Shown here: piece by piece, positions 7,433 to 49,727 of the stretch
Layout of the letters: each line of letters starts with the position of its first letter
How positions within the stretch are numbered: position 1 is the stretch's first letter
NCBI GenBank assembly: GCA_028829895.1
Contig: CM054184.1
Location: forward strand, 25,809,201-25,873,200
DNA length: 64,000 bases
Origin: Sinotaia quadrata
Taxonomy: Eukaryota; Mollusca; Gastropoda; Architaenioglossa; Viviparidae
Reading direction: 5' to 3'
The notes under the pieces: generated by a model
Database searches by the model: none
The model's input: the letters and a program-made list of their open reading frames with translations, nothing else
What the model was told of the DNA's origin: nothing
Position numbers and translations under genes: made by a program

Positions 7433-8943
7433 CTATTCAACAAACTTATACTCAATAATGTACTCTGGGTAAGCTTGATTGCTGTCAAATATGACAAAGA
7501 TTTTGGGGTCAAATATATTATCTACACAAGAATCATAACATTTACCAAAAGGTTCATTTTGGTCTAGAGGGGGTGGTCGACGCAAGCCTACACTTCCCCC
7601 AGTACTACGACCAACTAGGACTTTAGATAAGAACATATAGCGTGAACCTGAGCTGTATTTTGCTGATTCAGGGTTTGCATGTGCAAGGAAAGGCATGTTG
7701 CTAGAAGGTGGACGAACCCAAGGTGGTGGAAGAAGATGTACATGAGTTGAATGTGCTGCTGACTGTTGCCCTTGTGTTTGAAGTGGGCTGAGAGGATGGG
7801 GGTGTGGAAGGTGGGATGGTTGAGGAGCAATTGTCAGACTGGTAGACGTAGGTGGCTGACGAGACATCAAAAGAAAATTTTTGGAGTGTGGGCAAGGTAA
7901 AACAGAAGTACTGTTAGGCCCTGACAAAATTCCAGAGGGTGGCCGAGCTACCAGAAAACCTGTGCATGAACATGGCCGGATATTTGCAGACTGTTGTTGT
8001 TGCTGAGGTGGTGGTGGTGGTGGAGGTGGTTGCTGAGACAATCCATTAGAAGATATATATGATCCCATCATTGCAGAAGCTAGCTGGGGTTTGAGACTTC
8101 CACTCCCAGGTAATTGTGATGCTGAGGACGAAGATGTTGGCAAAGTAGTTATTGATGATATCCCCAGCATTTGAACCATTGGAGAAGGCTGGCTGGCCCC
8201 CTGAGATGCTGCTGCAGACTGACTGTTTAATAACATGCTTCTCTGTGTCGATGATGCATGCTGTGACTGAAATGCTGTTTGCTGTGATTGTGGAACTGGC
8301 TGTGCCTGTGGAGTAATTCCATGAAGGGACTGCTGTGATTGTGGAGCTGGCTGTGCTTGTGGATTAATTCGATGAAGGGACTGCTGTGCTGAGCCATGGA
8401 TTCTATTTGGTAGTCCATTCCCCATGTTGGTGGTACTGGAAATAGGTACTGGCATGCCAAGGATACCTGGACTGTTCAATATATTTGAAGTAGTGTGAAC
8501 CGATCCCAGAGGATGTGTATGGCTGGGTTGCGATGTAAGAACCATATGGCGACATCCCCGGGCCACAACCAATTTGGTCATAATTTTACGAAGAAGTTGG
8601 CAATGTGAAGATGTATTTAAACGGTGATGCCCTCTGGTAGCCTGCATGGTATTATCATCTCCTCCATTTAGACCTACATTACCTGGTCCTTGTAACTTGT
8701 GCACCAGTCCACTACTGCCCCCTAACAGGCCCCTTGGCATAAGACTATGGTTTGGTGAGGGGTTGAGAGACGCAAGTGTAACAGAGGCTGGGGCAAGGTG
8801 ACTAGATGAAAAGTTCCTGTTATTCCCTGAGAGATCTCCTCTTGCAGCAGATACAGAACGAAGAACAACAGATGACTGAGCACCATCTGATGTTCTGTCT
8901 GTGTAGTTGTGTGAGTATATACTATCCCGTGCAAAGTAACAAC
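7433..8943 (-). CDS. RING-PARP gene, exon 7: catalytic tyrosine, large Q/S/P insert, C-terminal catalytic strands
   Basis: The terminal exon encodes residues 1002-1504. It opens with GCYFARDSIYSHNYTD, which contains catalytic Y1004. The normal next strand, here MFLSKVLVGR, does not appear until residue 1438. The intervening 400-odd residues are open and low in complexity: Ser-, Gln- and Pro-rich, with two imperfect copies of an about 18-residue Gln/Pro unit (QQSLH...PQAQP) and a polyproline plus polyglutamine run. The end matches the PARP C-terminus: YDSCVD, DPKIFVIFD, NQAYPEYIIEY and stop. I1497 after PEY is the third triad position. Confidence 0.9.
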
Positions 8944-11900: not shown

Positions 11901-14900
11901 TCTGAAATCCATGGGAGTCCTTCTACTTTCTGATAAATTATTAAAAATCCACAACATGTGGTTGATTCCTGGGTGTCTATTTCTCTAATTATTTGCTTAT
12001 TTAATTTTTCCTAAGCCATCTTTGATATAGAATCTGTGAACATTTTTGTGTGCTCAAGTTAATTAAACAAATCAAGCTAAACAAAAAAACAAAACAAAAA
12101 TTCTGGATCATACAATAAAATTCAAAATATGTATGACACTTTAGAAGCAACATATGAAGTTTTAAGTTAAATTCAAATTCTAAGTGTTCTAATTTGGTAT
12201 TCTCATTACCCATACCAGACTTTTGAAGACACCTGCAGCAAGTTGAAGGCTAAAAAGAAAATCAAAGTTTTTAAATCTGTGTTGTATTAGTTCATATTAA
12301 ATTTGTGAAGTATTGTTCTCATTATATTTGTGAAGTATTGTTCTCATTATATCTGTGAAGTATTGTTCTCATTATATTTGTGATGTATTGTTCTCATTAT
12401 ATTTGTGATGTATTGTTCTCATTATATTTGTGATGTATTGTTCTCATTATATTTGTGATGTATTGTTCTCATTATATCTGTGAAGTATTGTTCTCATTAT
12501 ATTTGTGAAGTATTGTTCTCATTATATCTGAAGTATATGTCCCAGCATTCAGGTTCACTAACAAATTTTGAGCCATGCAATTAGATTTATTTTCTGGCAA
12601 TTCCCTGAAAAAATAAAATTGGTTTTGAAATTTCTACATTAGATTAAAAAGCCCAAACAGTGCAATTTCTTTTTTAATGGATATAAGCCTGATAGCCTGG
12701 GAAGAAATTTAAAAAAATCAGTATTAATATTAGAAACAAATATTGCTTTAGTCTTATATTATCTGCTGGATAATAACAGTTTGATTACTTAAATGATTAT
12801 AAACATAAAAAATAAAAATAAAACCCCCAAAACAATCCAAAATAACACACACGCAAAAAAAAAATGTTATCCACATGATTTTAAACTTAGCATCTCCAAA
12901 TCCCAGCTTGATTTTCTGTGAATGCAGGAAGGAAATAAATAACAAATAAACAATAAACCAGTATCTTATAAACTTACAAAGTTTAAATAAATATTTATAA
13001 AATATTTGACCAACCATGTCCATAAGCAACTCCATGCTTTCCACATACTCGCCAGTCAAAACCTTTGCGGCATATAGCATCAATGACAGAACACTTTGTA
13101 CCATGGAACAACATTTTCTCCTCAACACTTAGACCATCATTTTCCTGCACCATTTCAAGACGCTTCCTAATAATGGGAGAAAAAAATTAAACACTTTACA
13201 ACATTTTAAGAAATAAACCCAATGTGTCCCCCCAAAACGCAAACTATACAATAACATTTTTCCATTAACACTTTATAATAGAATCAAAATCAAACTTATT
13301 TTGGAGGTTTGCACAAAAAAAGTACAAATCCATAATATTTTAAGTTACAATATTTAATGGTAATGCTACAAATATAAATTGAATTGTTAAGTATTTATTA
13401 TAAATTGGCATTTTGGATTTTGACTATATTTATTTTAAAATCAGTAATTATTGAGGACTCACTGTCTTTCGATTGTTTCTTGCTCGTTAATAATCAGCCT
13501 AATCTATGAGAATACTCTTCTGTCAAGAATGTTTTCTTTGTTTCTGAATTTTGGCTGACATCATTGTCAGTGCTAAAATAGCTTAGCCTCTTTCTGTGAT
13601 GTCTTAACATACAATTCTTCTGTGTATATTATTTTACAGTGCAAACTGTATATCATAATTATTTCTTGGGCAAAAGGTGTTCAATTATATCAGGTAGTAC
13701 CAACTAATTTTTCAAATTTCATTCAGAGTAAAACAAAAGTGTTTACATGATAGTATTAGATAATATAAGGTTGCTTGCAAAATTCTAATAGAAAACCTCA
13801 AGAAAAAAGTTTATGAAATTTATGAAGTTTATGAATCATCATATGAATATAGAAGTTAGTCACCATCAATTTACAAGACGAATAAAGGCTCATTTTTGAT
13901 ACACTGTAAAAAGTTAAAATGCTCAGTTATGAAATGGAAAATTTTAAATTAAAACAGAAAGGTGTATTCCAAATGATAAAAAATGAAGAAGTTTTTTTTT
14001 TCAGAGAATGTATTATATTTTACAAACTGTGCAAACATAGCTCTTCATTATGTAAATCATTTGTTATGCATTATAAAGTGCATATTCAAGACATATAAGA
14101 AATAAGTGTCTTAAAATGTATTTAAAACAATAAAGTACCAAGGAGTTTTAGCCCAATTTTCTCCAAAGACACTGATCTAGAAGCTAGCGATATGAGGTCT
14201 CAAACAATCTTTGGAATTTAGAGGACAAAAACGTTAATACACAAATTGTAAAATGTCACATCTCTGGAACCATGTTACAAATGTGGTTCAAATATTAAAA
14301 GAAAGAGGAATTCATGCTCTATCTAGATGATGTAATCAATATTTGCTGACTTAAAAAATGTTAAGATTATTATTCTAGCTTGTTGAGAGTCAACTATCAT
14401 ATAATTTATAACTCATTCAAATAATATCTTTTCAGCATCTAATTGTAATGTGTGTATTAATGAATATACATTTTTTGGTTATTTAGAAAAAGAAACTGAA
14501 CATACAGAAAGTTATGAAGGTTTTACAACAATTACATCAGTAGTTATACTTCCACCAACTAAATAATAATTTGTACTGAACATAACAAAACCTGCTCCTC
14601 AACCACCACCAAAAAAAAAAAAACCACCCCCAAAATTGTTGCAACACACTGCAATATCTTGCAAACCTTCATATATCACTTTTAAATAATATAAAAATGT
14701 GACAGGTCTTCTAAAAGGAAATGCTAAGTATAAACAAAAAACCCAACAAGAGAATGGTTAGAAGGTAATTTCAATTGTTAATCAATCATTCACTTTGTTG
14801 AATCATTTTCAAATATAATTTTGATATAACACTTTTAGTATAAAGCTTATGTGCGGCTTTAATAATTTTATTTCAATAAAATAAACTATGCAACTAAATA

Positions 14901-17900
14901 GTTAAAAAGGAAAATAATGTTAAGAGGGGGGTTGTTAAGAACTGCAATAAAAAAATAGTAATTAGTATAAAGTAAAAGTAATTTAAAACCCAAAATATAA
15001 TTATAAATAAAACAAAGAATAAATATATACGTATTTAGATATTAATTCACTATTAGCAATTAAATTTTTAATGTTTAAGAGAACAGTTGTAAAATCCATG
15101 TACCTAGACTAATTATTACATATACAAGTAAATTATTAAACAGTTACTAATTCATACTATGTTTATAATTAATATTAAGAGTAATATATGTAAAATCAAG
15201 ACCCTGAAAATATAATTGCTTGATTAAGTTTTATCACTAAATGTAATGTGTGTACAAAATATTTTAATGAAAATAAGCTGTAGGAGACTTGGTACAGTTT
15301 GCTGAAAGCATAGCACTATTCTTTCCTAGGTGACTCTTCAACCAAAAAAAAACTACAGAAAATCGCAATAAAAAAAAACAACAAACAAATCTCAGTAAAG
15401 TTTAACTTTAGAATAAGATATATTAATAATTATTAATCAAATAATATGACTGTAAAAAAAAAAATCGAGTATAAAATAAATGCTACTATAAAACAAAGCT
15501 AAAGTTTTATTTTTACCAAAGCGTGCTTCATAGATAGTTTAAAATTAGTGTGAAATACAGTAGGGTTGTCGCAAAGAAATAATTAGGAACTATAGAAGTG
15601 AGGATCAAAGACATTGATCTTGTAACTGTATAGCTGCTAAAATTAACTTGCAATTACTAATTAAATTCATACACAAATAAAGAGCTATATATAATGGAAG
15701 CAATACTAACTGATAAGCATCAAAATCAATCACTTATGAAGTTTGCTGTAGCTCTAAATTTTGTAACACCCACACCACTGCCTTTGCTAGAATTTAAAGC
15801 AGAAGCTTTTTCAGTTACTGTTTGCACTAAACTACACCTAAAATTACAAGAGGATTTTAAATGCTAGCTTCAAGGTATAATGGATGCTGTTCTCATTGCA
15901 CTTTTGCAGGTTTCAGCAGGAAAAAAAAATATTCAAATGCAGCAACAGCAATGATTTCCAAGTAACTAAGTTTTTAACTGATTACCAAAGCTTGAGAGTT
16001 AGGTTATGAGTAATAAAAATGGACCGGGAGAAAGTTTACGATTGCACCCTTATTTTTTTGTTCTTACAGATAAATGATATAAGAAAAAGTCAAATGCAAT
16101 CATATGCGAAATGAAATTTTCATGTTGTATAATTGTCCCCAACAAATAGATCCAATTTAAATGAATTTGACAAAAATAAATTTCAATGTGCATTTTATAA
16201 CAACCAATGCAAAACTGTCTACTTTAAAACCTTAATATATAATAAACAGTGCTTTTCTCATTAAAAATGTTGGCTGGCACTTGAAGAGACACATCTACAA
16301 TGTATATATATTCCATTTCTCTTTGTCTAGAATTTTAATGTGCAACATAAAGTATAGGGTCACTATAGCAATTAAAAAACACTAATGTATGGATTTTAAT
16401 GAAAATTTACTACAAAGGTACAACACTTTTTCTAAATATCCTAGGACATATGCTTTTCTTGTTAAACCTGAACAGTATGATGCTTGACTAATGATTCTGT
16501 CATGTGCACCCCCACCCCCCTAAAAAAAAAGACCCCCCCCCTTCCCCACCCCACAACCTACTAAATCTACTTACAAAGAAAAGTATTTCCACAATATGGG
16601 GTTCTGGATTCGTAGGATTTTGGTGATGTCAGCCTGTGGAAAGGACATTGTATCATGAAACCTGATTGCCATTTCTATGTATTCCTCAGAGTCTGGAAGC
16701 AATGGGACTGCCAAAAGAGTCTGCATGGAACAAGAAATATTTTTATTAAAAAAAAAATCTATGTTATCCAATTTATTAATGAAAGTTTTTCAACTGTCAA
16801 ATCATAAACAAAATACATCTATATAAAAAAAAAAACACAAACAAACTATTAATGAAAAAACAAACAAAATAACTTTGAGGTGCTAGTTGTTTGTATATAA
16901 ATATGTTACATGCATGAGTGTCAATTTATTAATAAAAAGTTTTTCAACTGTCAAATCAAAAACAAAACACAGCTATAAAAAATGTATAAATGAAAAACAA
17001 ACAAAATAATGTTGTGCAAGTGTATGTGTGGGTTTATGTGTGTTAAATACATGAGTGCATGCATCTTTACAGATCAATTTGTGAAAGTAATTAGACAATG
17101 TTTTAGACAAATACAACAGGCCATTTTCAGGCCATTTTCTCTGTGCACAACAATACAAATCTACAATTAGCCTCAAAAGTGTAATCTGATAAACATTCCT
17201 TAAATTACTTTAATGCAGGCTAAATATGATGTTAAAAATAGATTATCTGCAGTGCTTTTTATAAGAATTAGTCTTTAAACATGGAAACAAATTAACATTG
17301 CTGTTAATGACCAGTTTTTAAAACTCAAATTCCACCAGCCATTAACTTTTGTGATAGCTTGCATTTAGTATTTTGTGTCAAATTTTGCTTATTCCATTAC
17401 AAGTTGATTTGCAGCCATAAACAAGTCTGAAAAGATTTTTTTTTCACAATTGCTTTTTATTTACTAGACCTTACTAAGTTACTTGTCTAAAACAAAAATA
17501 TCTAAGAATAGACATAACAGTTACAGACTTCCAAAAAAATTGCACATTAAATTGCACTGTTCAGAATGCTCAACTTGCTAAGCAAATTTTTTGTGGGTTT
17601 AATTTTGTGTGTGCGTGCACGTGCACATTTTTTAAAAAACAAAAATCTATGGTTAACAGGAAAAAATATGGTCAGTCAGATAATCTTGAACCAAGAATTT
17701 TTTCTTCTTCTTCTTATTCAAAACTTTATAAAGATAGTTCAGTAGAGTTTGAAATGATGAGCATAATTAAAATATTTACAACAACTAAGTTTTCTAACAA
17801 ATATTTCAGTTGAGTTTAAAGAGATAATAACTGAAATATTATCCTCCAACCCCAAGTTTTTGAACAAAAATTGTTAAAATTGTTAAGATTAACTTTTGGC

Positions 17901-23800: not shown

Positions 23801-23841
<41 letters not shown>

Positions 23842-26800: not shown

Positions 26801-29800
26801 TTTAAATTATTGATATTTTAAAACTATTTTTTCTAAACAATAAATTTACTACATATGAGTGACTAATATTAATTCAGTACATAAAATAATATACATGTAT
26901 ATAAATATGAACTGTGATATTAAAAATATACATTCTAAGAAAATAGCAATCAAACTTTCGTGAGAGAGTGAAATGAAGACTGACCTATTTTCAAACTACA
27001 GTGGTATTTTGGAGGAAAAGATCAATAATTTTACTGTACATATATAGAACTAAATTTAATCACAGATTAATCATTAATAAATGCTTATAAAAGGATCTTA
27101 CCAATCAGGGGTTTCAGTTTTTCAACATGACAGGCAAATCAATCACAGCATCAACACAATGTGTTCCATGGATAGAACATTAGAAGTGATCATTGAAAAG
27201 AAGTGTACTACTGATTTTATTGTTATCTGAAATATTGTGGATCAATAATTGCGGACTATGGCATATCATTGAAAAGATACTGAAAATCTCCAGAAAACAA
27301 TATATTTTAAACTAATGTATGATAAATATCTGATCTGTAAAATGTACCATGAACTTTTTCTTTTTAAAAATTATTTGGTTATTTGCAAAATAGACTAAAA
27401 AAAATATTTGTAGAGATTTTTGTCCCCTGTTTAATGGACCATTCAGATTTTAGGCTACAAACCCACAGAAGATGATCTTTATTGTTAAAAAAAAAGTTGT
27501 ACCCCAAACATAAATTTAACTTTTTTGGCAATGATGTAACATTCGACCCATTAGTTGTTGTAACCCTAAGGTACTTTTGTCAAAAGTTTATGGTTACTAT
27601 AATAAAATTCAGGGAAAAAAACCAACAACACAGTTTGAAAGACAAAACATTTATCTGTAAATTTGTGTGTGTTTGTGTATTTTTTTGCACAGAAAACTGG
27701 ATTCCTTTTCATCTGGATTATTTTAATAGTTGCAATATTAACTAATATGCACAGTGATCATCTTTATTAAATATTTAAATTATCCTTGTAATATAAAAAA
27801 ATAAAAAAATAAAAATTGAAATTTTTGAAAACAATGAGTGAATGACTATCAATTAATTAATGATTAAAATGTTTAGAAAAGACTGGGCACACAAGATAAC
27901 AATAAGATGGAACAACATAAAAATTATCAGAATAAACTTACTCATTGGGTAGAAACTGTTGCAATTTCTAGCAATACATTTTAGAGATCCCTGCAAATAA
28001 AAAACAAAGACAGTTAAATTAAAGGTCCAAAATGCCTAACAATCTTTTGAACTTATTAATATTGTAATGAAAAATAAAATAAAAATATTTAGAGTGATAA
28101 AACCTCAAATTATTTTAGTTTATGTAACTGATACATATAGATTAAGTCAGAAAATTAATTAACTTATGATAATAAATGTAATAAAAAATAATACTAAAAA
28201 TTTTCAATCATATAATAAAGTTCCAAGTTTTCAATGCAGCTCTTGTAATGTAGTTAAAATTTTTACAAATTACATCTAAAACAATTTTGAAAGAAAATTA
28301 TTTCTCACTTCATTTTGTGGAAAAGCAGTTATAGTCATGGTAGACACTCATTTTGTTAATAATACACTACTTACTAGAATTCACTATCACAATTAACCCC
28401 ACTGTAAAGATCTACTAGTACTAGAAGTAGAACCCAAGACAGCAATATCAGGCATAATAAATACTAAACTAAAGACCGACAGGTTCCATATACTTGAACA
28501 GGACAACTACTTCAAGTTCTTATACATTAATTCCAGAAAAATTAAAAAAAAAAAATCTTGATTAGGCACTTAATTTCTATTGTATATGTTAGTAGAAATG
28601 CCTGAACTATTAAGTATCAGATCCAAATTTTGTCCCTGAGTAATGTCTCCTGGCAGGCAGCCATCTTGTTGCCTTTTGACAGGTAAGTTTGATGTTTGGG
28701 TGGGACCCAGTTTTATTATGTCATGCAAAGGAACATTTTATTGGCTGTGTATGCTGTGAGAGAGTATAAAAGAGAATAAATGGATGAAGAGACGAACGGT
28801 ACATATAAATAAATATAAATACAAATTCTTTCACCCCTCAAAATCTATGAATAACAAGATAGCTGAGGATGGTTAAATCAGGTTGTTTATTCCCTGATTT
28901 AAAGGGGGCACTACTCTTTCGCTGGGAATTTAAGGGGAGATGAAAATGATAAAATTCAAAATGTAAAATAAAGGTTAACTACACAATTCTTATGCGGCAA
29001 ATGGAGCCGCTTCAACAATAGTTCACATATAAAATAGGCATGAATTTTAACATTAGTCTAAAGTTCATATTTCACAAATGATACAATATAAATCGATATA
29101 AACAGAATAGATTCAGTATTCATAAGATTTAAATGTTCTTAATCTCAAAAGTTCTAGATGCGCGTTTGCCGTGCTAATTATTACTCACTTAGTAATGTCA
29201 GAGTTCCAAGAAGATAATGTAATCTCACACGTCACTCATAAGGGGTACTTTGAAAAAAGATATGACACAATGGCTGTGTCGCATAGCAGTGTAGATCTGC
29301 AGGGATCTAGGCACCACTTTCAGATTATCGCAAGGGAAAAATCTGATACTCATTGACAGTTGCCAACCTTGATAATTGTTATTTGCTGGTTGCTGCGTCA
29401 ACGGAAGAGCCCAACGACGTTGAGCATTATCGGATGAATCGTCCAATGGTATGTGTCATTGCATTCTATCGAGTATAGAAATCCTCGTGTCCTGTAGGAA
29501 ATGTAGGTGCTAGCCCCTTGACTGCGGGATATGAAGTCAAACAAGCTCAGACAGGGGAGAACAAAAGTGCCTCTCATGTCATTAACTGCATCCTACAAAC
29601 GTCGCGTGCATACTTGTCTTGACAGTGAACCTTCCCATTCTGCCAAAAAATATACTGGTAATTTTGTCTCGTTACTCAATATTAGGCAGCCAGATGGATG
29701 GAAAGAGGTATTTTTAGCTTTCCTTTATGAAATCTCTGTACATGAGATATTCATATATATGAAGAGAAATGTCTTCACATGAATCCACGTTTCCAGCATG

Positions 29801-35800: not shown

Positions 35801-38800
35801 CATGAGTCGCCCGCAGGCCTTTTCTAAGTCTTCACATTATTAATAATGTATAAAGGCAAACTAGAAGAGTATATCAAACTGGTAGCCCTTCGTATGACTC
35901 AGGACTCATGAAGTAGCTCTCACAGTCTCAGTATCAAAAAAGTTGGTGACCCCTGCACTAACAGATATAGTGCTGGCCTGCACAGCTGGGCAGAGAGCAG
36001 CCTCAGCAGCAGTGGACTGCAGGAGTAGATAAGCAGCTGTACAATGGGGTAAAATGAGGTAAACAAAATGGAAATGCTTGAGAAAAAAAATTAAGTCAGC
36101 CATATTATTATTTTTGAGTATGTAAACTAAAACTATGCAACTTTTGCAAGTGTTTATCTAGAATTTAGATAATACAAACCCTACAGCTCAAAGAGCTGAA
36201 TGAGCCACAGGCAGATGTGCTGGTGCCTAGTTGGTCATAGTTTGCCTCCCCCAGTCATGGCAGCCACATATATATGTTATGCTGTCCCTGGCTTAAAACT
36301 AATAGTAAATTATCAAAATAATTTTTTTTCAATTCACTGATGATTTGATCCCAATGCTATAACTGTACAAATCAGGGAAAGGTAAATATTACTGTATTAT
36401 TCATACATAAATTGCCTGAAAAATCAACAGAAAACAGCAAAATCTTTGCCCCATCTCTCTTCTGCATGTGATTGTGGTTCATATGGCCTTTAAGCTATTT
36501 TGACTAATTTGAATTGAAAAAGGCTGGATGGCATCTCTAAACTTATAATTTTAACAGTTATAAAGACTTAAATAAATTTCTTGATCACTTACCTTCTGTC
36601 GCCCTGTCAACACAAGTTTCACCTGTTCTTCTAGACACTGACCACAGGCACGGTGGCCTTGTGTACACCGAGAGAGCTGGGTTCCCACAATACTATTCTG
36701 ACATCGTTCACATAATCCTCCTTCTCTTTCTCCAATGCCCACTCCTCCCACTGAATTTGCACAAACCACAGACAGGGATTTACCAGATGTTCCAGATGAG
36801 ATTGTAGACAATGAAGAAGAATCATTTGAAAAGGTATCGCCTTGTACAGCAGGACGTACACGCTTACGAGGAGGAAGACTTGAATTGTCCAGCATACTGA
36901 CAGTACTAGGATTTAACCTTTTCATGGGACACACTGAGGGCATAGTTTTACAGGTTGAAGTAGACACACTAAAGGTAGCAGTTGTGGCCACAGAAACCAC
37001 AGGTGGAATTTGTGTCTGACATTGGTGATACTGAAAATCCCTGGACTGTGTAGACACTGAAGTTGGTGCAAATGGCAATAATGATGCAGGTGGATTTGGA
37101 GATAAAGCAGATAAAGAAGAAGTTAAAGATGATGATACAGGTACATGTATTCCAGTAGTAGCTGCATTTTGATGATCTAGTACTTGTGCAATTATGCGTG
37201 CAACCTCTGAAGAATAGTTATCAACACCCGAAGTACATGCATTAGAAGTTGATGCCTGAGTCACAGATTGTGAGGCCAACACAGAAAAATCACAAATAGG
37301 GGTAGCTAAAGATTTACTACTACTGGAACACTGTTGCTGCAATTGCTGGCTTGAAGCCTGTGCTGTCAATCCGACTACATCACTATCACACAAACTTGGT
37401 GCATTATTGTTGTCAGATGCTGCTGAAAAAATGTCTGTTTTAATAGAATCTGGGCATACTGTTTTAGTCTGAATAACAACAGATGTTACTGAAGTGGGTG
37501 TCTGTCCTATAAATGTTTCATGAGTTCCAATACTTCCAACTTGCATGGACGAGGAAGGTGTACAAGCTGAGGAGGAAACAGCACCTATGGAATTACCATC
37601 ACTATTCCCTGGCATAAAAACAGCAGATATGTCATCATCCATTAAGAAATCAACTAGAAGCTGAGTGTCTGTAGAACTTGATGATGACAATTTTATAGGA
37701 CCAGTTTGTCCTGTGCATGAACCTAAAGAAATCTTCTTGCAACTAAGCCTCTGGGAAGGAGATGTAGTAGCCATATCATTATAAACATTTGCTGAGCTAT
37801 CTGTATTCAATGCTTTCAAGTCCTGACTTACAAAGACAGTACTGGTTATAGCAGTGTCATGGATGGTGTTCAGAGATGGACAGTTAACTGACTGCGATGA
37901 AAGAGTGATTGGGAATGGTTGGGGTATCACAGTTACAGGACTAAGGGCTGGGGTCAGTGTGGTTTGTGCATGATTAGACATCAGCACAGGGTTACTGGCT
38001 GCAGGATCAACTCCTCTAAATGTAATGCTACCATTACTTGAATCATCAAAACTATTGTTGTCAAGGTCACTGACAAAATGTTCAGAGTGACTAATAGGAT
38101 CATCACTATCTGAACTCAAAATGGCCATATTGACTCCAGCATTTCCTCCATTTGTGTTGGCTGTTTTTGAAAGATCTAAAGGTGTCTGATCAGCATCAGT
38201 AAGTGACAGTGAAATTTGTACTGCAGAGGCCAGAGAGAGATTTCTACGCATCATACATTTTGACTCACGTCTATGTGCAAGATCATCATCAGAGCTAACC
38301 CCTGCTATTCCTGATGAACATTTTGTTGATGGGCCACCATTTGCAGCAGTCTCTCCTTCAATGCACAATGAAAGGCTTGAAGTGTCCATCCCTGAATGCT
38401 TCCATATGGTGGCTTGTGGGACTGGGGCTTTTGTTTGAGCAATAAAAATGACTTCTCCATCTTGATCTTCACCTTCATCAATGGTGATGGAGACTTTTTC
38501 TTCTTTTACAACCACAATGTCATCATCTTCTTCATCTGCAAAATAAGTCAACAGTTTAATTTTAAACTAACTAACAAGGCCACATGGTCATAAAAATCAA
38601 TGCAGTGAATTGTAATTCACATAAACAAGGTTAAGCTTATTGGTAGACAAAATTTGCATGGTTGTGTATTATTAGTGTCCCACTTGTTCTGTGGGTGCAA
38701 AATATCTTACTTGTGGCCCTCTGGCCTAAAAGGTTTGTGCACCTCTGATCTATTACATTACTCAATACGCAGAACTAGAATTCAAAATCTAATAAATAAA

Positions 38801-41800: not shown

Positions 41801-44800
41801 TGGGGGCTGTGAGTGAGAAGAATTGCTTGCATAATTAGTTATAATTGTTTAACGTTCCTAGTTCGTGCTTTGTTTACATAAGTTTACCTGTCTTTAAATT
41901 CATTGGCTTAAACTACAAGTGCGGAATTTAATTGGACTGAAGGGTGAATTTGGGCAACCGGTCTGTTGTCAGAATAAGTGGAAAGGAACTAAATAACTAA
42001 AGTAAAATCCTAAATTCTGGAACAGGATCTATAAATACCGGGGGAATGTAACAAGTGGGGGTTTCTCATCGCAGGATGTGTGATATGGAAATTGTAAAAT
42101 TCTATACCTATGGACAAAATTGTATCTCTTAGACTTAGTGAAATGGATTGCAAAAAGAGGAAACTTATTGGTTCCAGGTCATTTGAGCAAAATACTTTGT
42201 TTCTTTTTTTTTTCTTGGCTTTTCATCATTGTGTATTTGTGCATGTATTCTTTGCAGGTGAATAATGTACATTTGATGTGTTGACATGTTGTAATACATT
42301 TTTAGTTGTAGCTAGATTATGCATGCTAACTGATGTAATGATTATTTAGTAGTGTGTAAACTAAGTAACTCATTGTGCAAAAAGTTGATGTGTTGCACCA
42401 CGGAACTAGAGGAAAGTTAACTGGTAGGCTTCAGTTGGTAATACCATAGATTAATTGTTAACTAGTATTACAGTTCGGAAAGCAATTTTCTTTGCTGAAC
42501 GAAGTGCACGGAGAGCACTAAAGAAAGTTTAGAACAGGCATTCTAAATAAACCGTGATGGATTTGAACAGATTATTGAGAATCTGACGAAGAAAGGCTTC
42601 CTGATAGGATACAAAGATGAAGAGTTGACAAACTATATCAGGACCGAGCTAGACAAGCTAGAGAAAGAGAAAGTGGATAGAGAAGAATGCGAAGCAAAAC
42701 GACAAGAGTGATATCGTGCTTTAGAGATGAAGTGGTTGGTATCAGTGACCGTAGAAGTAGCGGTGGAAATTCACATTCCAATGACGGAAATGATCAGAGT
42801 CGAGAGCTATTTCCCAAGAATAAATATGGTTCCGTTCGACGAACAGAAGGATCGACTAACACATATTGTACAACCGTCTAGAAACTGTAGGCAAATTAGC
42901 ACGAGAAAACCTGACTATAGCACAGTCCAGACAAGCTGAATACTATAAATAATAAAAAGACAAAACCTAGAGAGTTTGAAATGAATGACAAAGTATTATT
43001 GCTGCTTCCTGAAGTGCATAATAAACTTCAAATGAGATGGAAAGGTCCTTTCATAGTGACAGAAAAGATGAGGGGACTAAACTATAGAATCCAGACAGGC
43101 AAGAGGGAAAAGATTTTTCACATAAACTTACTAAAGAGGTATGTTGACCGTGATGAGCAAACCACCCAGACAGACCTTGTTGTAGCAACAGTAGTGACAG
43201 AGGAGGAGGATGGGGAGAACGTCAGTGTCACTGGCACAGTCAAGTTGTCCTCTACGGGCAGACGAGACAGTCAAAGACGTTAAAGTGAATGATGCCTTGA
43301 CTGACGAACAGAAAAAAGAAGTAACAGAATTACTACAGGAATTTTCACCAACCTTAACAGACAGACTGGGGTTGACTGACCTGATAGAATTCTCATTAAA
43401 GTGGACTGACAGCAAACCGATACGTTTGAAACCTTATCTGTTATCGCATGCGAAGGTCGAAGATGTCAGAGGGGAGATTAAGACTATGCTAGATCTAGGG
43501 GTCATAGAGAGGACTGATAGTGCGTATGGGTCACCCATAGTATTGATTAAGAAGCACGATGACACCTTTCGTTTTTGCATCGATTACAGAAAACTTAATC
43601 AAGTGCCCGAATTTTGCACTGAACCCTTACCAGACCCAAATCTCATCTTTACCAAACTCTCTACCTCTCACTACTTTACCAAAATAGATTTGGCCCGTGG
43701 GTTTTGACAAATTAAGGTAAAGGAATCAGACCACCATATTTTAGCTTTCACTACACCAGTAGGAAACTACACGTGGAGAGTAATGCCATTTGGAGTTTTG
43801 AACGCCCCTAGCGTATTCTCTAAAATGATGCAATCATTACTAGAACCATCGCATGGCTGAGGGGTTGAGAATTTTATGAATGACTTGATCTTAGGTACTG
43901 AGAACTGGGAAGAGCACTTAGCACTGCTAATAGATGTGCTCACAAGCCAATCTCACCACACGCCCGACGAAATGCGAAGTTGTGTATTTCTCATTGGACT
44001 TCTTGGGACATCGTTTGAGCCAAGGGACTATTTCTCCAAGTGAAGCAAAAATCAAACAGTTAAAGGAGACTTTAAAACCCGAAACTAAAACGCAGGTTCG
44101 GAGTTTCTTTGGGCTTGCGAATTACTACCATAAGTTCGTGCCAGATTTCAGTGCTATCGCGAGTCCATTAACCGACCTTACTCAGAAAAATATGCTGAAG
44201 AAAGTATGGTGAACGAAACTTGCCAGAAATCTTTTGATACGCTTAAAGCAAGGTTAACATCAGACTTAGTAATTAATCTACCTGACTTGACAAAACCATT
44301 TTTGTTTTGCCAGTAACGTAGGACTAGGGGCCGTACTGTTACAAGAACATGATAACATAAAGCACCCTGTTGCATATGCTAGCCACAAACTTACTGAGGC
44401 AGAACAGAAATACACTACTACTGTACTAGCGAGAAAGAATGTCTTGCCATCATATGGGCCATAAAAAAAATTTGAAAACTACTTGTATGGAAAGACGTTC
44501 ATTATTGAATGTGATCACCAACCTTTAGCTTTCTTAGACCAAGCCAAGTACACTAATATTAGATTTCTCAGAAATATATATATACACACACACACAGTCA
44601 ATATTAAATAAACATATAACAAAATTAACATATGTAACAAGACAAACATAACGGTGGTCCATCTGTAATAATATATTACTTTTACATATTAATTGTCACT
44701 CCCCCATATCAAATAAATCAATAGATACTGGAAATACTTTCTTTTTCTTATGAGAATATATATATTTATATAAATTATAATACAATTGAAAAAATCAAGA

Positions 44801-47800: not shown

Positions 47801-49727
47801 ACATTTTTTAAGGTACAGTTTTCACTGAACTGGGGTTTTCCAGTTACTATAGTATTACTTTTCCTATAAATTTAATGCTTCCAACATGACCAGATATTGA
47901 AGGTCAGTAAAACACATTTACAAATAAATATTTAAAAGTTGCTTTGCAAAATAAATAAACATTAATATATATATATATATATATTGCTTATTTGGAAGAT
48001 TCTATATAATATAATCAGTCAAATGAACAGCTTATTTTAAAAAGCAATCTAGTTAAACATGATGATAATGAAAGACTGACAAGAAAGCCAATTGCTATAC
48101 AGTACAGTTTCAGAATACAAATGAGTTCCATTCTAAAGGATGTTCAAAGTCTAATTTTGCATGCATATTGGAATTTGTTGGTACATGTAAATGGTCTGTA
48201 TGTACCCCTTAGTAAATGAGAGTAAGAAGTTACTTAAAATAATGGCACCCAACTCCTAAGTCCTATGCCTCAGTGATGCCAAGAGGCTTATGGCAAAGTA
48301 CATCGGTGAACAGAACTAGTTTGCTGCCATTCAAAAGTACAGAATAGATCATTAGATCATAGAATACTTATGGCTTTATGGGCTTGTTTCTATTACTTGT
48401 ATTAGTGAATTGCCCAAAGTTGAGACCGCAGTAACCCAAGACCTTAATATACTAATAAAAATTAAAATATTAAACAAATGACATTTTTTCTCCAAACCAA
48501 AGCTTTGTAACTTTACATTTCTTTCACCCAATCATATATTTCAATTAAAACACCAACTTCTTTGCAAGTTTTAAATTCCTGTTTGGTCTATGTTCTTCAT
48601 TTGATAACCATGTAATACAGTTTAAAATGTTTTCATAGCTGATGGCTTACAATTCAAATTCTGATCATTTCCCATCTCAAATTAAAGATATGATATAGAA
48701 TAATGTATCAAGTTCTTATTAAAAGAGAATTCAATAGTCAATGAATTTGTAGAATTATGGTGGATGGATAACACATTATCTTTATGCTGATCAACTTGCT
48801 TAGGCCATATTTGTCTGCCAGCTGTTGTTTGTTTACTAACTACTAGTACATGTAAAAAGGACACAAATACAAGAAACCTAGAGTGATATAACCAAAATAT
48901 AAATATTTAAAAATGCAAGATCGCAAACAGTGGTTTAAAAAAGTATAATACTTTATATTTAAGGTTTTAAAAATTTTAAATTGATGAATCTGAATGAGGT
49001 TTGCAGTTGGTTTATACATTAATTTAAGTAGTATTATTCAAAACCTTGCCAATATATTTTTCTAAAAAATGCCTTATATTACTTTTGCATATTTTACAAG
49101 CTGATATCAAGCAAATAGTTTTACACTATGACTGTCAATATCAGTTGCTATATGCGTCTTAAAGGCCCCTAATAAATTTACGAGGATTCACGTTTCCACA
49201 AAGCAGACGACCCTCCAATGACTACTGTCAACAGGAATTTAAAGATACTTTTGTGAAATACCATTTAAATACAATAAAAAGGCTAATCAAAAATCATGAG
49301 AATAAAATAATACGTTGTTTTCGATGAAGACAAAGGATGAAAATTTATGCAGACTAATCCCAAGAAACATCCAAATCGAATTCCCAAGAAAGGAAGAAAA
49401 TGAACTTGTAGACGAAAGAGTATTTTGACTTCAGTATAGGGCCTACAGGTTGCTTACTTATTTTATATTTCAAACATCAATAAATTACATTTTAAAATTT
49501 CATCAATTATGTTCTATAAAGAAAAGAAAAGAACATATTATACTTCTAGTTAGAAATTGTGCTGGAATTCATTTGATCACAGTTTATTTCCAGTTCGCTA
49601 AATCGGTTCCTAATGCTCTCAACTCAATCGACTACGACAAAGAACAATAGTAGTTGTTTTATTTTAAACTAGCAAGTTACTTACCTTCAGAAGGAATAAG
49701 AATAGGGCTTTCTTCTGCCGTTGTCAT
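7433..49727 (-). CDS. RING1-PARP fusion protein: predicted mono-ADP-ribosyltransferase with RNF216-type RING1 (7 exons, 1504 aa)
   Basis: Seven exons (49727-49685, 38535-36593, 27990-27942, 22656-21986, 16720-16575, 13166-13015, 8943-7433) join in frame to 4515 nt, stop TAG included. Seen: SIM-like cores near residues 9-11, 21-24 and 43-46; PLDLS at 133-137; basic cluster at 569-576; RING ligands C623, C626, C638, H642, C645, C648, C667, C672; acidic Ser/Asp-rich spacer; PARP catalytic domain from PENW (about 890) with H972 in LFHGT, Y1004 in GCYFAR and I1497 in PEYI. Known: H-Y-I PARPs such as PARP7, 11 and 12 are mono-ADP-ribosyltransferases. The RING spacing is, from memory, that of RNF216 RING1. 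Inferred: a nuclear SUMO-binding protein that could couple ADP-ribosylation to ubiquitin. Odd: no IBR or RING2, and about 400 residues inserted within the catalytic domain. An upstream non-coding exon or alternative exons cannot be excluded. Confidence 0.85.
9771..11400. repeat. Dispersed repeat, copy A (partner at 33969-34870)
   Basis: Two blocks, about 9771-10175 and 11150-11400, match 33969-34870 in the same order with many substitutions and small gaps. Shared runs include AAGTACCAAATAAGAAAAAT and TTACATATTTCAAACTCCTA. About 970 bp between the blocks is absent from the partner. No protein family is recognised in it; the class is unknown. Confidence 0.7.
12297..12537. repeat. 25-bp minisatellite, about nine copies
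   Basis: Unit ATTATATTTGTGAAGTATTG plus TTCTC. Variants differ at two sites (TTTG or TCTG; GAAG or GATG) and are grouped along the array, which suggests local unit spreading. Confidence 0.95.
13015..13166 (-). CDS. RING-PARP gene, exon 6: NAD-binding histidine
   Basis: A 152-nt exon encoding residues 952-1001. It contains EEKMLFHGT, whose H972 is the first residue of the PARP H-Y-x triad, then IDAICRKGFDWR and GKHGVAYGH, matching the nicotinamide-pocket strand and loop of mono-ART PARPs. Acceptor ATTATTAG is normal; the donor GTTGGT is weaker than the other donors. Phase 1 at the end completes a glycine codon with exon 7, giving YGHGCYFA. Confidence 0.9.
13167..16574 (-). other. Intron 5 of the RING-PARP gene
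   Basis: Very AT-rich. A pyrimidine-rich C tract lies at 16507-16553, just downstream in transcript sense of the exon 5 donor, and reads as G runs in the pre-mRNA. Nothing else is recognised. Confidence 0.8.
16575..16720 (-). CDS. RING-PARP gene, exon 5: PARP domain, N-terminal catalytic helix region
   Basis: A 146-nt exon with acceptor TTCCATGCAG and donor GTAAGT. It encodes residues 903-950, including SEEYIEMAIRFHDTM and the family hallmark ITKILRIQNPILWKYF; the I-x-R-I-Q-N-x-x-L-W-x-x-Y pattern is diagnostic for PARP7/11/12/14-type ADP-ribosyltransferases. It ends in phase 2, and the split leucine codon continues in exon 6 as LKRLEMV, matching the usual K-K-x-M segment after the LW motif. 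Confidence 0.9.
16769..17060. repeat. Tandem duplication, two units of about 150 bp
   Basis: The block starting CAATTTATTAATGAAAG and TTTTTCAACTGTCAAATC at 16769 recurs at 16921 with small changes, including the AAACAAACAAAATAA tract and the TACATGCATGAGTG / TACATGAGTGCATGC ends. Confidence 0.8.
19839..20579 (-). mobile_element. hAT element, internally deleted, with intact TIRs and 8-bp TSD
   Basis: Ends are perfect inverted repeats CAGGGGTCTCAAACTC / GAGTTTGAGACCCCTG, flanked on both sides by CTGTATGA (19831-19838 and 20580-20587). Eight-base duplications are the hAT hallmark. Inside, the minus strand encodes part of a hAT transposase of the ZBED/GTF2IRD2-like group, for example KYVDAIVKLQEEFDHRF and FADPFFNVEDVPPVLQMDL (about 20380-20240), and a decayed C-terminal region to about 20040. 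The N-terminal and catalytic parts are missing, so the 741-bp copy is non-autonomous. Confidence 0.92.
21986..22656 (-). CDS. RING-PARP gene, exon 4: RING1 tail, acidic spacer, start of PARP domain
   Basis: This exon encodes residues 680-902 with acceptor GATGCAG and donor GTAATA. The first part (SELKHSLPNMVVEILEDKL) resembles the helix that follows RING1 in RNF216. Next comes Thr/Ser-rich sequence and a very acidic stretch of repeated Asp/Asn/Ser (about 775-815), then a second acidic patch DDNNDDDEMSEFEWMDEDE. The last residues, YPENWAKMDNN, match the Pro-x-x-Trp entry strand of TCCHH-type PARP catalytic domains. No IBR or RING2 cysteine pattern is present here or later. Confidence 0.87.
23807..23837. 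repeat. (GA)n microsatellite
   Basis: About 15 AG dinucleotides, preceded by a short TA/CA stretch. Confidence 0.95.
24405..24640. repeat. 24-bp minisatellite, about ten copies
   Basis: Unit TTCCTTAGTATATCTTTAAT plus GTTG. Because 24 is divisible by three the array stays open in one frame and makes a false 88-residue ORF of repeating ISLMLFLS. One unit carries a short T-rich insertion near 24560. Confidence 0.95.
26150..26335 (-). other. GC-richer patch with a short conserved-looking reading frame
   Basis: This 185-bp patch stands out from AT-rich surroundings. The minus strand reads STKAAEAGNAPYMIIQSRG then MFSAADNFMLTCFQIS, a stop, and on in the same frame LWEEATANRLSAQLDRL and stop at 26153. 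The segment after the first stop is preceded by TGTTTTCAG, a possible acceptor. I cannot assign a family. It could be a decayed gene or exon fragment, a retrocopy remnant or chance; it is not compatible in phase with insertion between exons 3 and 4 of the host gene. Confidence 0.3.
27942..27990 (-). CDS. RING-PARP gene, exon 3 (49-nt microexon completing RING1)
   Basis: A small exon flanked by acceptor TTATTTGCAG and donor GTAAGT. It encodes GSLKCIARNCNSFYPM plus one base of the next codon. The two cysteines (C667, C672; C-X4-C) supply the last zinc ligand pair of the RING begun in exon 2, giving C648-X18-C667-X4-C672. Its frame is fixed by both neighbours: exon 2 ends in phase 0 and exon 4 starts with the remaining two bases of a serine codon. 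It is too short for ORF detection and was found by looking for the missing ligands. Confidence 0.82.
29824..29950 (-). promoter_or_regulatory. Promoter-like cluster in intron 2 (CCAAT, HSE-like dyad, TATA)
   Basis: Read on the minus strand: GCCAAT at about 29948-29943, a heat-shock-element-like dyad CTTCTGGAAG around 29861-29852 and CTATATAAGG at about 29832-29823, in promoter order and spacing. The surrounding 28.65-30.0 kb is GC-richer and less repetitive than the intron average. No ORF follows. It could be an internal promoter giving a transcript that begins downstream of exon 2, or the U3 region of a solo LTR. Confidence 0.35.
30366..32095 (+). pseudogene. Decayed ORF of a second dispersed repeat-associated family
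   Basis: Fragments in several plus-strand frames: a basic N-terminus with NVRRSKKDYEYRKKKDQKK (about 30490-30545), KDRVSAVFEAFQEFKK (about 30830-30878) followed by NPDQKIGKSTFA, NIHFFFDGAGGYFKN (about 31610-31655), a stretch like SFFATAHSKGSVDED (about 31710-31760), and LFVDFTKVAKAICPNIVVLH (about 31820-31880). I recall high-copy invertebrate proteins with EAFQEFKKENPD and FFATSHGKGAVDGIGG in this order. Many stops and frameshifts make it a relic; the element class is unknown to me. Confidence 0.45.
33395..33565. mobile_element. hAT-like MITE, 171 bp
   Basis: Termini CAGGGGTGCACAAACC and GGTTTGTGCACCTCTG are inverted repeats with one mismatch. The flanks (GAGATTTA and ATCTATTA) are only weakly alike, so a clean TSD is not shown. 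The interior has no ORF of note. Confidence 0.7.
33545..33665. repeat. MITE end plus flank, duplicated at 38718-38855
   Basis: From TTGGCCCTCTGGCCTAAAAG through GAACTAGAATTCAAAATC to CTTTTATTATAATCAAATAT the sequence is nearly identical to 38718-38855. The shared part runs about 100 bp past the MITE end. Confidence 0.85.
33969..34870. repeat. Dispersed repeat, copy B (partner at 9771-11400)
   Basis: Collinear with copy A in intron 6. It lacks about 970 bp found there and has its own insert around 34430-34670. Confidence 0.7.
35493..35679. mobile_element. hAT-like MITE, copy 1 of a composite
   Basis: A 187-bp element with ends CAGGGGTCACCAA and TTGGTGACCCCTG. Left flank CACTAACA (35485-35492), right flank CTCTTGTC (35680-35687). 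The flanks do not match each other but match the flanks of copy 2 crosswise. Confidence 0.9.
35768..35955. mobile_element. hAT-like MITE, copy 2 of a composite
   Basis: A 188-bp near-identical direct copy of the element at 35493. Left flank CTCTTGTC (35760-35767), right flank CACTAACA (35956-35963). The whole unit 35493-35955 is therefore bracketed by a perfect 8-bp duplication CACTAACA. Confidence 0.9.
36593..38535 (-). CDS. RING-PARP gene, exon 2: SIMs, CtBP-like motif, Ser/Thr-rich region, most of RING1
   Basis: A 1943-nt open exon, acceptor TTTTGCAG and donor GTAAGT. It encodes residues 15-662. The start has hydrophobic cores IVVV and VIFI flanked by Asp/Glu, typical of SUMO-interaction motifs. 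PLDLS at 133-137 fits the CtBP-binding PxDLS consensus. A long low-complexity Ser/Thr/Gln region follows, then PPRKRVRP (about 569-576), a likely nuclear localisation signal. The exon ends with six of eight RING ligands: C623-X2-C626-X11-C638-X3-H642-X2-C645-X2-C648. The RING is cut by intron 2 in phase 0. The low-complexity part has no recognisable domain. Confidence 0.88.
38718..38855. repeat. Second copy of the 33.5-kb MITE end plus flank
   Basis: Begins TGGCCCTCTGGCCTAAAAGG and continues into the same 3' flank. The left half of the MITE is missing or deleted. It lies in intron 1 just beyond exon 2. Confidence 0.85.
39280..39379. repeat. Perfect 39-bp inverted repeat (hairpin)
   Basis: The left arm 39280-39318 and right arm 39341-39379 are exact reverse complements, separated by a 22-base loop. 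The arms start ATATGCATTTCTTATAACTA. Perfect pairing in an AT-rich intron implies recent origin or constraint. Confidence 0.97.
41146..42053 (+). repeat. Putative 5' LTR of the gypsy element
   Basis: Starts TGTAACACGC and ends GGGGAATGTAACA, immediately before a primer-binding-like sequence. The segment is GC-richer than its surroundings. There is no second LTR to compare, so the left border is a guess from the TGT/ACA rule. Confidence 0.4.
42056..42072 (+). other. Putative primer-binding site
   Basis: TGGGGGTTTCTCATCGC begins two bases after the presumed LTR end. TGG would pair with a tRNA CCA end. The matching tRNA was not identified. Confidence 0.35.
42556..42915 (+). pseudogene. gag-like remnant of the gypsy element
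   Basis: Reads as a Lys/Glu-rich helical segment (with KKGFLIGYKDEELTNYI, then a charged coil), a TGA stop at about 42709-42711, and then ESYFPRINMVPFDEQKDRL. The charged coil followed by an F-P-x-x-x-P-F-D-x-x-x-D-x-L motif fits gypsy gag. It ends where integrase-like sequence begins, which marks an internal deletion. Confidence 0.5.
42880..43175 (+). pseudogene. Integrase C-terminal remnant
   Basis: KLARENLTIAQSRQAEYY is followed by NDKVLLLLPEVHNKLQMRWK and HINLLKRYVD. The pattern D-K-V-L-x-L-L-P, W-K-G-P-F and H-x-N-x-L-K is the GPY/F module at the integrase C-terminus of gypsy elements. The catalytic core and zinc finger are absent. It precedes the reverse transcriptase. Confidence 0.75.
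43259..44575 (+). pseudogene. Reverse transcriptase and RNase H remnant
   Basis: Shows the approach motif MLDLGVIERTDSAYGSPIVL, FCIDYRKLN, FTKIDLARGF then a TGA stop, VMPFGVLNAPSVF, and a catalytic-loop position reading FMNDL instead of Y-x-D-D, so one catalytic aspartate is lost. After a frameshift near 43940 come FLGHRLSQGTISPSEAKIKQ and VRSFFGLANYYHKFVPDF. RNase H pieces follow (GLGAVLLQEHDN, HPVAYASHKLTEAEQKY, then CDHQPLAFLD), with the copy ending at about 44575. It is inactive. Confidence 0.85.
46190..46520 (-). pseudogene. hAT transposase C-terminal fragment
   Basis: On the minus strand the frame reads FKINFYQALKEVEKFDHTS and then DAASIVTALPPTQVTVKHLF and SVFRILKSDLRETMK. The A-x-x-V-x-x-L-P-P-T-Q-V-S-V-E-R-L-F-S pattern with following S-D-L-R marks the hAT C-terminal dimerisation domain. 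At least one in-frame stop lies in the upstream part. No TIRs were found, so the element borders are unknown. Confidence 0.7.
46529..46585. repeat. 57-bp segment shared with 11103-11159
   Basis: Ungapped match of 44 of 57 bases by eye, ending in the shared ACTGTGCCGCTACCTA. It abuts the hAT fragment, so the 11.1-kb copy may be a remnant of the same element family. Confidence 0.5.
47964..47984. repeat. (TA)n microsatellite
   Basis: About ten AT dinucleotides; a similar tract lies at about 32875-32896. Confidence 0.9.
49685..49727 (-). CDS. RING-PARP gene, coding exon 1
   Basis: This exon encodes 14 residues plus one base, from ATG at 49727-49725 to donor GTAAGT at 49684-49679. The core ILI followed by PSE and, across the junction, an acidic run DEEDDD looks like a SUMO-interaction motif. 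The start was chosen because it is the first ATG upstream of the donor, lies just below a GC-rich promoter-like stretch, and the phase-1 end (GAA G) joins exon 2 (AT GAA) exactly to restore the acidic reading frame. Confidence 0.75.

What the first reader, a model, noticed from the sequence alone, without database searches (positions are those of the whole stretch)
7433..49727. Fusion of an RNF216-type RING1 with a PARP catalytic domain in one protein
Seven exons join without a frame error into a 1504-residue protein with an eight-ligand RING and, 220 residues later, a complete mono-ART PARP signature. RING and PARP domains are not combined in any vertebrate PARP I know. Such a protein could write ADP-ribose and ubiquitin on the same target or read one to place the other. 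Sequence shows both domains; the functional link is inference.
Basis: partly seen in the sequence, partly recalled or inferred. Interest (0 to 1): 0.85.

Follow-up and report, generated by a model that had tools for sequence, protein, structure and literature searches.

The report
Ubiquitin-ligase half fused to PARP enzyme
A probable snail gene, with relatives in clams, oysters, scallops and a worm, joins the front part of a ubiquitin-attaching enzyme to a different enzyme that attaches ADP-ribose, so that one ancient protein carries parts of two signalling systems.

Summary
Confirmed, and more than claimed. Seven exons join in frame into 1504 residues; related proteins span all six junctions. 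The RING is the RING1 of the RBR ubiquitin ligase RNF216 (only PDB molecule below E 1, 1.9e-5; profile 8.8e-9). The PARP domain is PARP12-like (3.5e-43), split by a 418-residue insert. Thirty relatives share the order; Pfam misses the RING. A second class keeps RING1 and IBR before PARP, so PARP stands where RNF216 has its catalytic RING2. This genome also holds such a gene, an RNF216 gene and an RNF216-like gene. Predicted introns agree between the two fusion genes (five, position and phase), and RNF216 shares a 49-base mini-exon with them: one ancestral RNF216-PARP fusion. SIM-like, PLDLS and basic motifs suggest, but do not show, a nuclear SUMO/CtBP-guided mono-ADP-ribosyltransferase. Ubiquitin-ligase activity is doubtful because RING2 is missing. 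The searches made listed no published description.

The parts
49685..49727 (-). exon 1, residues 1-14 and first base of codon 15; holds SIM-like motif 1 (PILIPSE, 49706-49686)
   Evidence: junction to exon 2 matched by 15 of 30 relatives
36593..38535 (-). exon 2, to residue 662: SIM-like motifs 2 (38527-38498) and 3 (38458-38435), PLDLS (38182-38168), basic NLS-like LPPRKRVR (36877-36854), first half of RING1 (36712-36593)
27942..27990 (-). exon 3, 49-nt mini-exon with the last two RING1 ligands; same length and phases (0 to 1) predicted in the class B gene and in RNF216 of this genome
21986..22656 (-). exon 4: helix that in RNF216 joins RING1 to IBR (to 22556), then acidic linker (46 D+E of 190 residues) where class B has the IBR
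16575..16720 (-). exon 5: start of PARP domain; begins at a phase-0 intron also found in the class B gene
13015..13166 (-). exon 6: PARP core with LFHGT (residues 970-974)
   Evidence: PF00644 3e-8 on the open frame of this exon
7433..8943 (-). exon 7: rest of the GCYFARDSIYSHNY motif (first PARP half to 8897), 418-residue low-complexity insert (8896-7643), second PARP half (7642-7448), last residues and stop

Best explanation
The gene descends from a duplicate of RNF216 (published layout SIM, TIM, CUE, RING, IBR, RING) in which the part for the ubiquitin-transferring RING2 was exchanged for a PARP12-like mono-ADP-ribosyltransferase domain. A later copy lost the IBR and gave class A, the window gene: SIM-like motifs, PLDLS, NLS-like stretch, RING1 plus helix, acidic linker, PARP. 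Shown by sequence: architecture, homology of both domains, conservation. Strongly indicated by predicted splice sites: one ancestral fusion. Inferred: a nuclear enzyme, brought to SUMOylated proteins and CtBP corepressor complexes by its N-terminal motifs, that mono-ADP-ribosylates partners there; RING1 acts as a docking module for an E2, ubiquitin or another partner, not as the ligase of the RBR mechanism, which needs RING2.
Against: No biochemistry or localisation. Motif patterns were written after seeing the sequences and the rows are related, so the counts are not independent tests; the strict third SIM pattern misses the window's own copy. Splice sites of the class B gene and of RNF216 are predicted, chosen with homology in view. 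The PARP-only tree does not group classes A and B strongly (74/22). The whole models are of low mean confidence (pLDDT 58.1 and 53.1, pTM 0.40 and 0.41), and the IBR part of the class B model is poor (blocks of 36 to 51). No RNA from this species. Even docking of an E2 is untested.
Confidence: 0.6

Rival explanations
1. Dual writer: RING1 is an active RING-type E3 and PARP an active ART, so that the protein puts ubiquitin and ADP-ribose on one target or one on the other.
For: Eight ligand columns invariant in 34 of 34; conserved residues in the central helix of class A; RING1 pLDDT mostly 83-95 in the Mytilus model; RNF216 tolerates C517A at the E2-anchor position (PMC9834252, passages); DELTEX proteins show a RING at work beside an ADP-ribose-binding domain (PMC12687431, passages).
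Against: RBR RING1 holds E2-Ub in an open state that prevents direct discharge, and catalysis goes through RING2 (PMC9834252, passages), which is absent; position before the second Cys (my mapping of the E2 anchor) is Arg in the window and variable in 31 class A rows, A, S, G or V in 18 class B rows, and the residue matching RNF216 Tyr519, whose mutation lowers activity, is also variable.
Confidence: 0.2
2. The RING1 is only a structural or dimerising zinc module left over from RNF216, and the protein is an ordinary mono-ART.
For: Variable E2-anchor position; class A lacks the IBR; the model of Pomacea P0070, which falls in class B by its PARP domain, has an incomplete RING.
Against: The ligands and several residues of the central helix and following helix stay conserved from annelid to gastropods, which points to a kept interface.
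Confidence: 0.2
3. Gene-model artefact: two neighbouring genes joined on paper.
For: No RNA of this species; introns up to about 11 kb, with open frames that look like transposon remnants.
Against: 30 relatives with the same order, 7 of them on short transcript-like contigs; six of six junctions spanned; the class B gene in the same genome has matching exons.
Confidence: 0.02

Closest known systems
RNF216/TRIAD3, RBR ubiquitin ligase
   Same: RING1 sequence; 49-nt mini-exon with phases 0 to 1 in the same genome; SIM in the published layout; class B also has the IBR and, by a weak match, a CUE-like exon
   Different: RING2 with the catalytic cysteine is absent and a PARP domain stands in its place; class A also lacks the IBR
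PARP12 and other clade 3 mono-ART PARPs
   Same: catalytic domain, best PDB hit PARP12 at 3.5e-43
   Different: no WWE, CCCH or macro domain found by Pfam; RING1 in front; 418-residue insert inside the catalytic domain
DTX3L/PARP9 and DELTEX ligases
   Same: link between a RING and ADP-ribose chemistry (PMC12687431, passages)
   Different: RING plus DTC domain, with PARP9 a separate protein; no DTC reported here by Pfam
Dictyostelium U-box PARP and coral TRIM-PARP (P0080)
   Same: a RING-like module and PARP in one protein
   Different: other RING families and accessory domains (macro; B-box)
SUMO-targeted ubiquitin ligases such as RNF4 (recalled; papers seen in listing only)
   Same: several N-terminal SIM-like motifs plus a RING
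   Different: RBR-type RING1, ligase activity unproven, and a PARP domain

Membership tests
PARP/ARTD superfamily, mono-ART type | PARP catalytic domain PF00644 over its cut-off | tested here: met
   81.8 bits against 26.7
PARP/ARTD superfamily, mono-ART type | His and Tyr of the NAD site | tested here: met
   HGT and CYFA aligned to PARP12; both columns invariant in 34 of 34 relatives
PARP/ARTD superfamily, mono-ART type | third catalytic position not Glu (HYI type; rule and its place recalled) | tested here: inconclusive
   C-terminus YPEYIIEY aligns with YPEYVIQY of PARP12, a mono-ART; which residue is the third was not tested
PARP12 subfamily | WWE and CCCH domains | tested here: not met
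   PF00644 is the only Pfam family reported up to E 10 for the full protein
RBR E3 ligases (RNF216) | RING1 | tested here: met
RBR E3 ligases (RNF216) | IBR | tested here: not met
   none between RING and PARP in the window protein; present in 18 of 19 class B rows by pattern
RBR E3 ligases (RNF216) | RING2 with catalytic cysteine | tested here: not met
   after RING1 come linker and PARP; RING2-like motifs were found in the RBR genes on C6 and C1
RING-type E3 ligases | eight zinc ligands, C3HC4 | tested here: met
RING-type E3 ligases | E2-anchor residue before the second Cys | tested here: inconclusive
   Arg in the window, variable in 31 class A rows (row P0027 was read one motif off, its residue is Lys); RNF216 itself has Cys and tolerates Ala
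RING-type E3 ligases | E2-dependent ubiquitin transfer | not testable with these tools
   needs an assay
SUMO-targeted ubiquitin ligases | tandem SIMs that bind SUMO | tested here: inconclusive
   SIM-like motifs in 22, 25 and 19 of 31 rows; binding not tested
DELTEX ligases | DTC domain | tested here: not met
   none in the Pfam scan

The most novel reading that the evidence does not exclude
A catalytic-domain swap turned an RBR ubiquitin ligase into an ADP-ribosyltransferase that still presents E2-bound ubiquitin through RING1: the enzyme would ADP-ribosylate ubiquitin, the E2 or a ubiquitinated or SUMOylated partner, a one-polypeptide animal route to ubiquitin/ADP-ribose cross-modification at SUMO- and CtBP-marked chromatin.
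Probability: 0.25. Interest if true: 0.92.

Novelty: new variant of a known kind. Interest (0 to 1): 0.78.

Why it matters
In the RBR mechanism RING1 hands ubiquitin on to RING2. Here the receiving half has been replaced by an NAD-dependent enzyme of another modification system, and the product is kept in gastropods, bivalves, an annelid and (class B) a brachiopod. The family is a natural test of what a RING1 does without RING2, and of whether ubiquitin or its E2 can be steered to an ADP-ribosyltransferase. It is easy to overlook: the precomputed Pfam domains of the 30 class A relatives show PF00644 and no RING, and records carry names such as PARP7S, Zinc finger CCCH-type antiviral or serine-rich adhesin.

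Tried and rejected
Artefact of joining two genes: rejected. Chance RING: rejected. PARP12 orthologue with a lost WWE: not favoured, since class A stands as its own group. Classes A plus B as one group on the PARP domain alone: the AU test rejects it (p 0.004) when Pomacea P0070, which nests in class B, is left outside; with P0070 inside, it is one side of a branch at only 74/22 (40 of 80 rows, my choice). I therefore rest common origin on introns, insert place and RING1. The earlier quick tree (70 rows, ten left out, P0001 among them) gave class A 96 and left A plus B open too. Long insert as a mark of the family: 103-418 residues in 48 family rows, 3-12 in 31 of 32 other PARPs, 31 in P0070 (P0049, P0066 and P0068 dropped; P0001, 103, is unsure because its second half is incomplete). 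The class B gene of this genome has only about 48 (my count), so length is no clean mark. Search with Lingula P0032: 7 hits, 3 of them known class B rows and 4 listed as PARP12, PARP14 or unnamed, not checked for a RING. The three protein searches need shared 5-residue words, so absence outside these phyla is not shown. Fold searches filled up with PARP (50 rows shown each); no RING or RBR chain was among those rows, so the RING fold was not tested by structure. A loose PxDLS pattern is less telling than PLDLS: 1.16 of 31 rows in shuffles, and 2 of 37 other PARPs have it somewhere.

Full report
What is there. The minus strand of 49727-7433 holds a seven-exon gene. Relatives span each junction without gaps (16 residues, at least 6 identities): exon 1/2 15 of 30, 2/3 26, 3/4 30, 4/5 11, 5/6 29, 6/7 30 of 30. 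The closest protein is from the snail Batillaria attramentaria (86% over a local stretch covering 34% of the query region; 44% over 1135 aligned columns), so the window is probably from a gastropod; the assembly has 984 Mb in 26 contigs.

The RING part. Pfam reports no RING in the whole protein; in 12 class A RINGs the best RING-type match is Sina_RING at 0.029. In the Protein Data Bank two RNF216 chains match at 1.9e-5, the third and last row being unrelated at 1.1; a profile of 12 class A RINGs gives RNF216 at 8.8e-9, the next rows being WD40 proteins at 1.3e-3 and above. The match runs past the eighth ligand into the helix that in RNF216 leads to the IBR. The eight ligand columns are invariant in 34 of 34 aligned relatives. 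The Mytilus model gives RING1 and helix pLDDT mostly 83 to 95.

The family. A search with residues 618-1030 gave 52 proteins; 32 of 52 carry the RING pattern before PARP, 20 do not. P0001-P0030 share the window's order (class A: gastropods, bivalves, the annelid Lamellibrachia and seven unnamed). Seven of the 30 come from contigs of 3 to 5 kb of which the frame fills 59 to 94%, as in a transcript (P0008, P0017, P0018, P0025, P0026, P0028, P0029; lengths, DNA not seen). P0031 (Pecten) and P0032 (Lingula) have RING1, then IBR, then PARP. A second search brought class B to 19 rows, 18 with RING1 and IBR by pattern, P0065 without. P0031 aligns over residues 494-630 with RNF216 at 2e-18 and over the rest with PARP12 at 2e-37; a class B profile (7 rows) gives RNF216 at 4.2e-24, the next RBR, ARIH2, at 1.3e-5. 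Class A and class B RINGs match at 99.6% probability. A third search, with Lingula, brought no further family member that I recognised (7 hits).

Origin. The own genome holds a class B gene on the same chromosome, C8 at 48.235-48.249 Mb. Its PARP exons match strongly (3e-14 and 1e-11 with P0031, further pieces weaker); the earlier exons match weakly but in order: RING1 0.003, helix 0.004, IBR 0.018, and a stretch like the Lingula N-terminus at 0.092, which I take for the CUE-like part. From RING1 to PARP the window gene has five introns, of phases 0, 1, 0, 2 and 1; I read the same five places and phases in the class B gene, plus further introns in the IBR. These class B sites are predictions chosen with the homology in view, and the 49-base exon was the best of three candidates of a pattern search that demanded its phases, so the agreement is not a blind test; its exact length of 49 bases was not demanded. 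The genome keeps an RNF216 gene on C6 with RING1 (7.2e-13), IBR and a RING2-like motif and no PARP motif found in 30 kb, and a second RNF216-like gene on C1. RNF216 on C6 has the same intron after the first RING1 half (phase 0) and again a 49-base exon ending in phase 1; its later introns were not mapped. The simplest reading: an RNF216 copy lost RING2 and gained PARP exons at a phase-0 intron, and class A later lost the IBR. Direction and order are inferred. The PARP-only tree (17 class A, 10 class B and 13 other rows) supports class A (99/96) and class B with P0070 (98/91) and does not settle their union (74/22).

The N-terminus. Class A proteins begin with up to three acidic-flanked hydrophobic runs of SIM type (in the window PILIPSE, DDDIVVVKEE, GEVIFIAQ): 22, 25 and 19 of 31 rows by strict patterns, 0.05, 0.02 and 0.10 rows in shuffles; the third pattern misses the window's own copy. 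PLDLS, the form of motif bound by CtBP (PMC2749851, abstract start in the listing), is in 22 of 31 (0.10 in shuffles) and 0 of 19 class B rows; LPPRKRVR-like basic stretches are in 19 of 31. The patterns were made after seeing the sequences. RNF216 is drawn with SIM, TIM, CUE, RING and IBR (PMC13153464, one legend passage); SIM features are reviewed in PMC12751080 (passages).

How it may work. In RNF216, RING1 binds the E2, E2-Ub is held open and ubiquitin passes to the RING2 cysteine (PMC9834252, passages). Without RING2 that route is closed. The E2-contact position (Cys517 in RNF216, Val284 in HOIL-1; my mapping to the residue before the second ligand) is Arg in the window and varies in class A, as does the residue matching Tyr519. 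Since C517A leaves RNF216 active, this only weakly disfavours E2 binding. I favour a nuclear mono-ADP-ribosyltransferase guided by SUMO and CtBP, with RING1 as a docking surface (0.6 for the whole mechanism; about 0.97 for the architecture and RNF216 origin of the RING). Ubiquitin or E2-Ub as substrate is the boldest reading left open.

Novelty. Passages of two broad PARP surveys mention U-box with macro and PARP in Dictyostelium, UBCc domains with PARP in fungi, moss and green algae, and other ubiquitin-related domains in amoeba and Trichomonas, but the passages shown hold no RBR or RNF216 fusion (PMC2964712, PMC4245714). The review on ubiquitin and ADP-ribose has no hit for fusion, invertebrate or mollus (PMC12687431). 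The rows listed by the searches (capped lists, open-licence papers only) showed no paper about it by title or abstract start. One oyster class B protein is named RNF216-like in its record. Both domains are known; the combination and the catalytic swap are the new variant.

Noticed in passing
window 19911-20674 (-), intron 4: open frames that read like hAT transposase remnants (weak Dimer_Tnp_hAT, E 0.15, below cut-off)
   Followed up: partly
window 42921-43707 (+), intron 1: open frames that read like a Ty3/gypsy reverse transcriptase fragment (motif recalled, not tested)
   Followed up: no
window 59182-62198 (-): several open frames that read like a further hAT transposase and an endonuclease fragment (recalled, not tested)
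   Followed up: no
window 12265-12580 and 24387-24669: tandem arrays with 25-base and 24-base spacing
   Followed up: no
own genome C4, about 28.2-28.7, 33.5-33.8 and 36.7-37.1 Mb: many PARP exon matches in clusters, suggesting a local PARP expansion
   Followed up: no
own genome C1 103206221-103212968: a second RNF216-like RBR gene with RING1, IBR and RING2-like motif, beside RNF216 on C6
   Followed up: partly
P0080, Acropora digitifera: TRIM-type RING and B-boxes in front of a PARP domain: another RING-PARP combination
   Followed up: partly
P0062, P0063, P0064, P0068: class B proteins with an added FN3 domain; P0064 and P0068 (Mytilus) also SH2
   Followed up: no
P0070, Pomacea canaliculata: falls in class B by its PARP domain; its model has an incomplete RING and a SUEL lectin domain at the end and may be faulty
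   Followed up: partly
   Followed up: no
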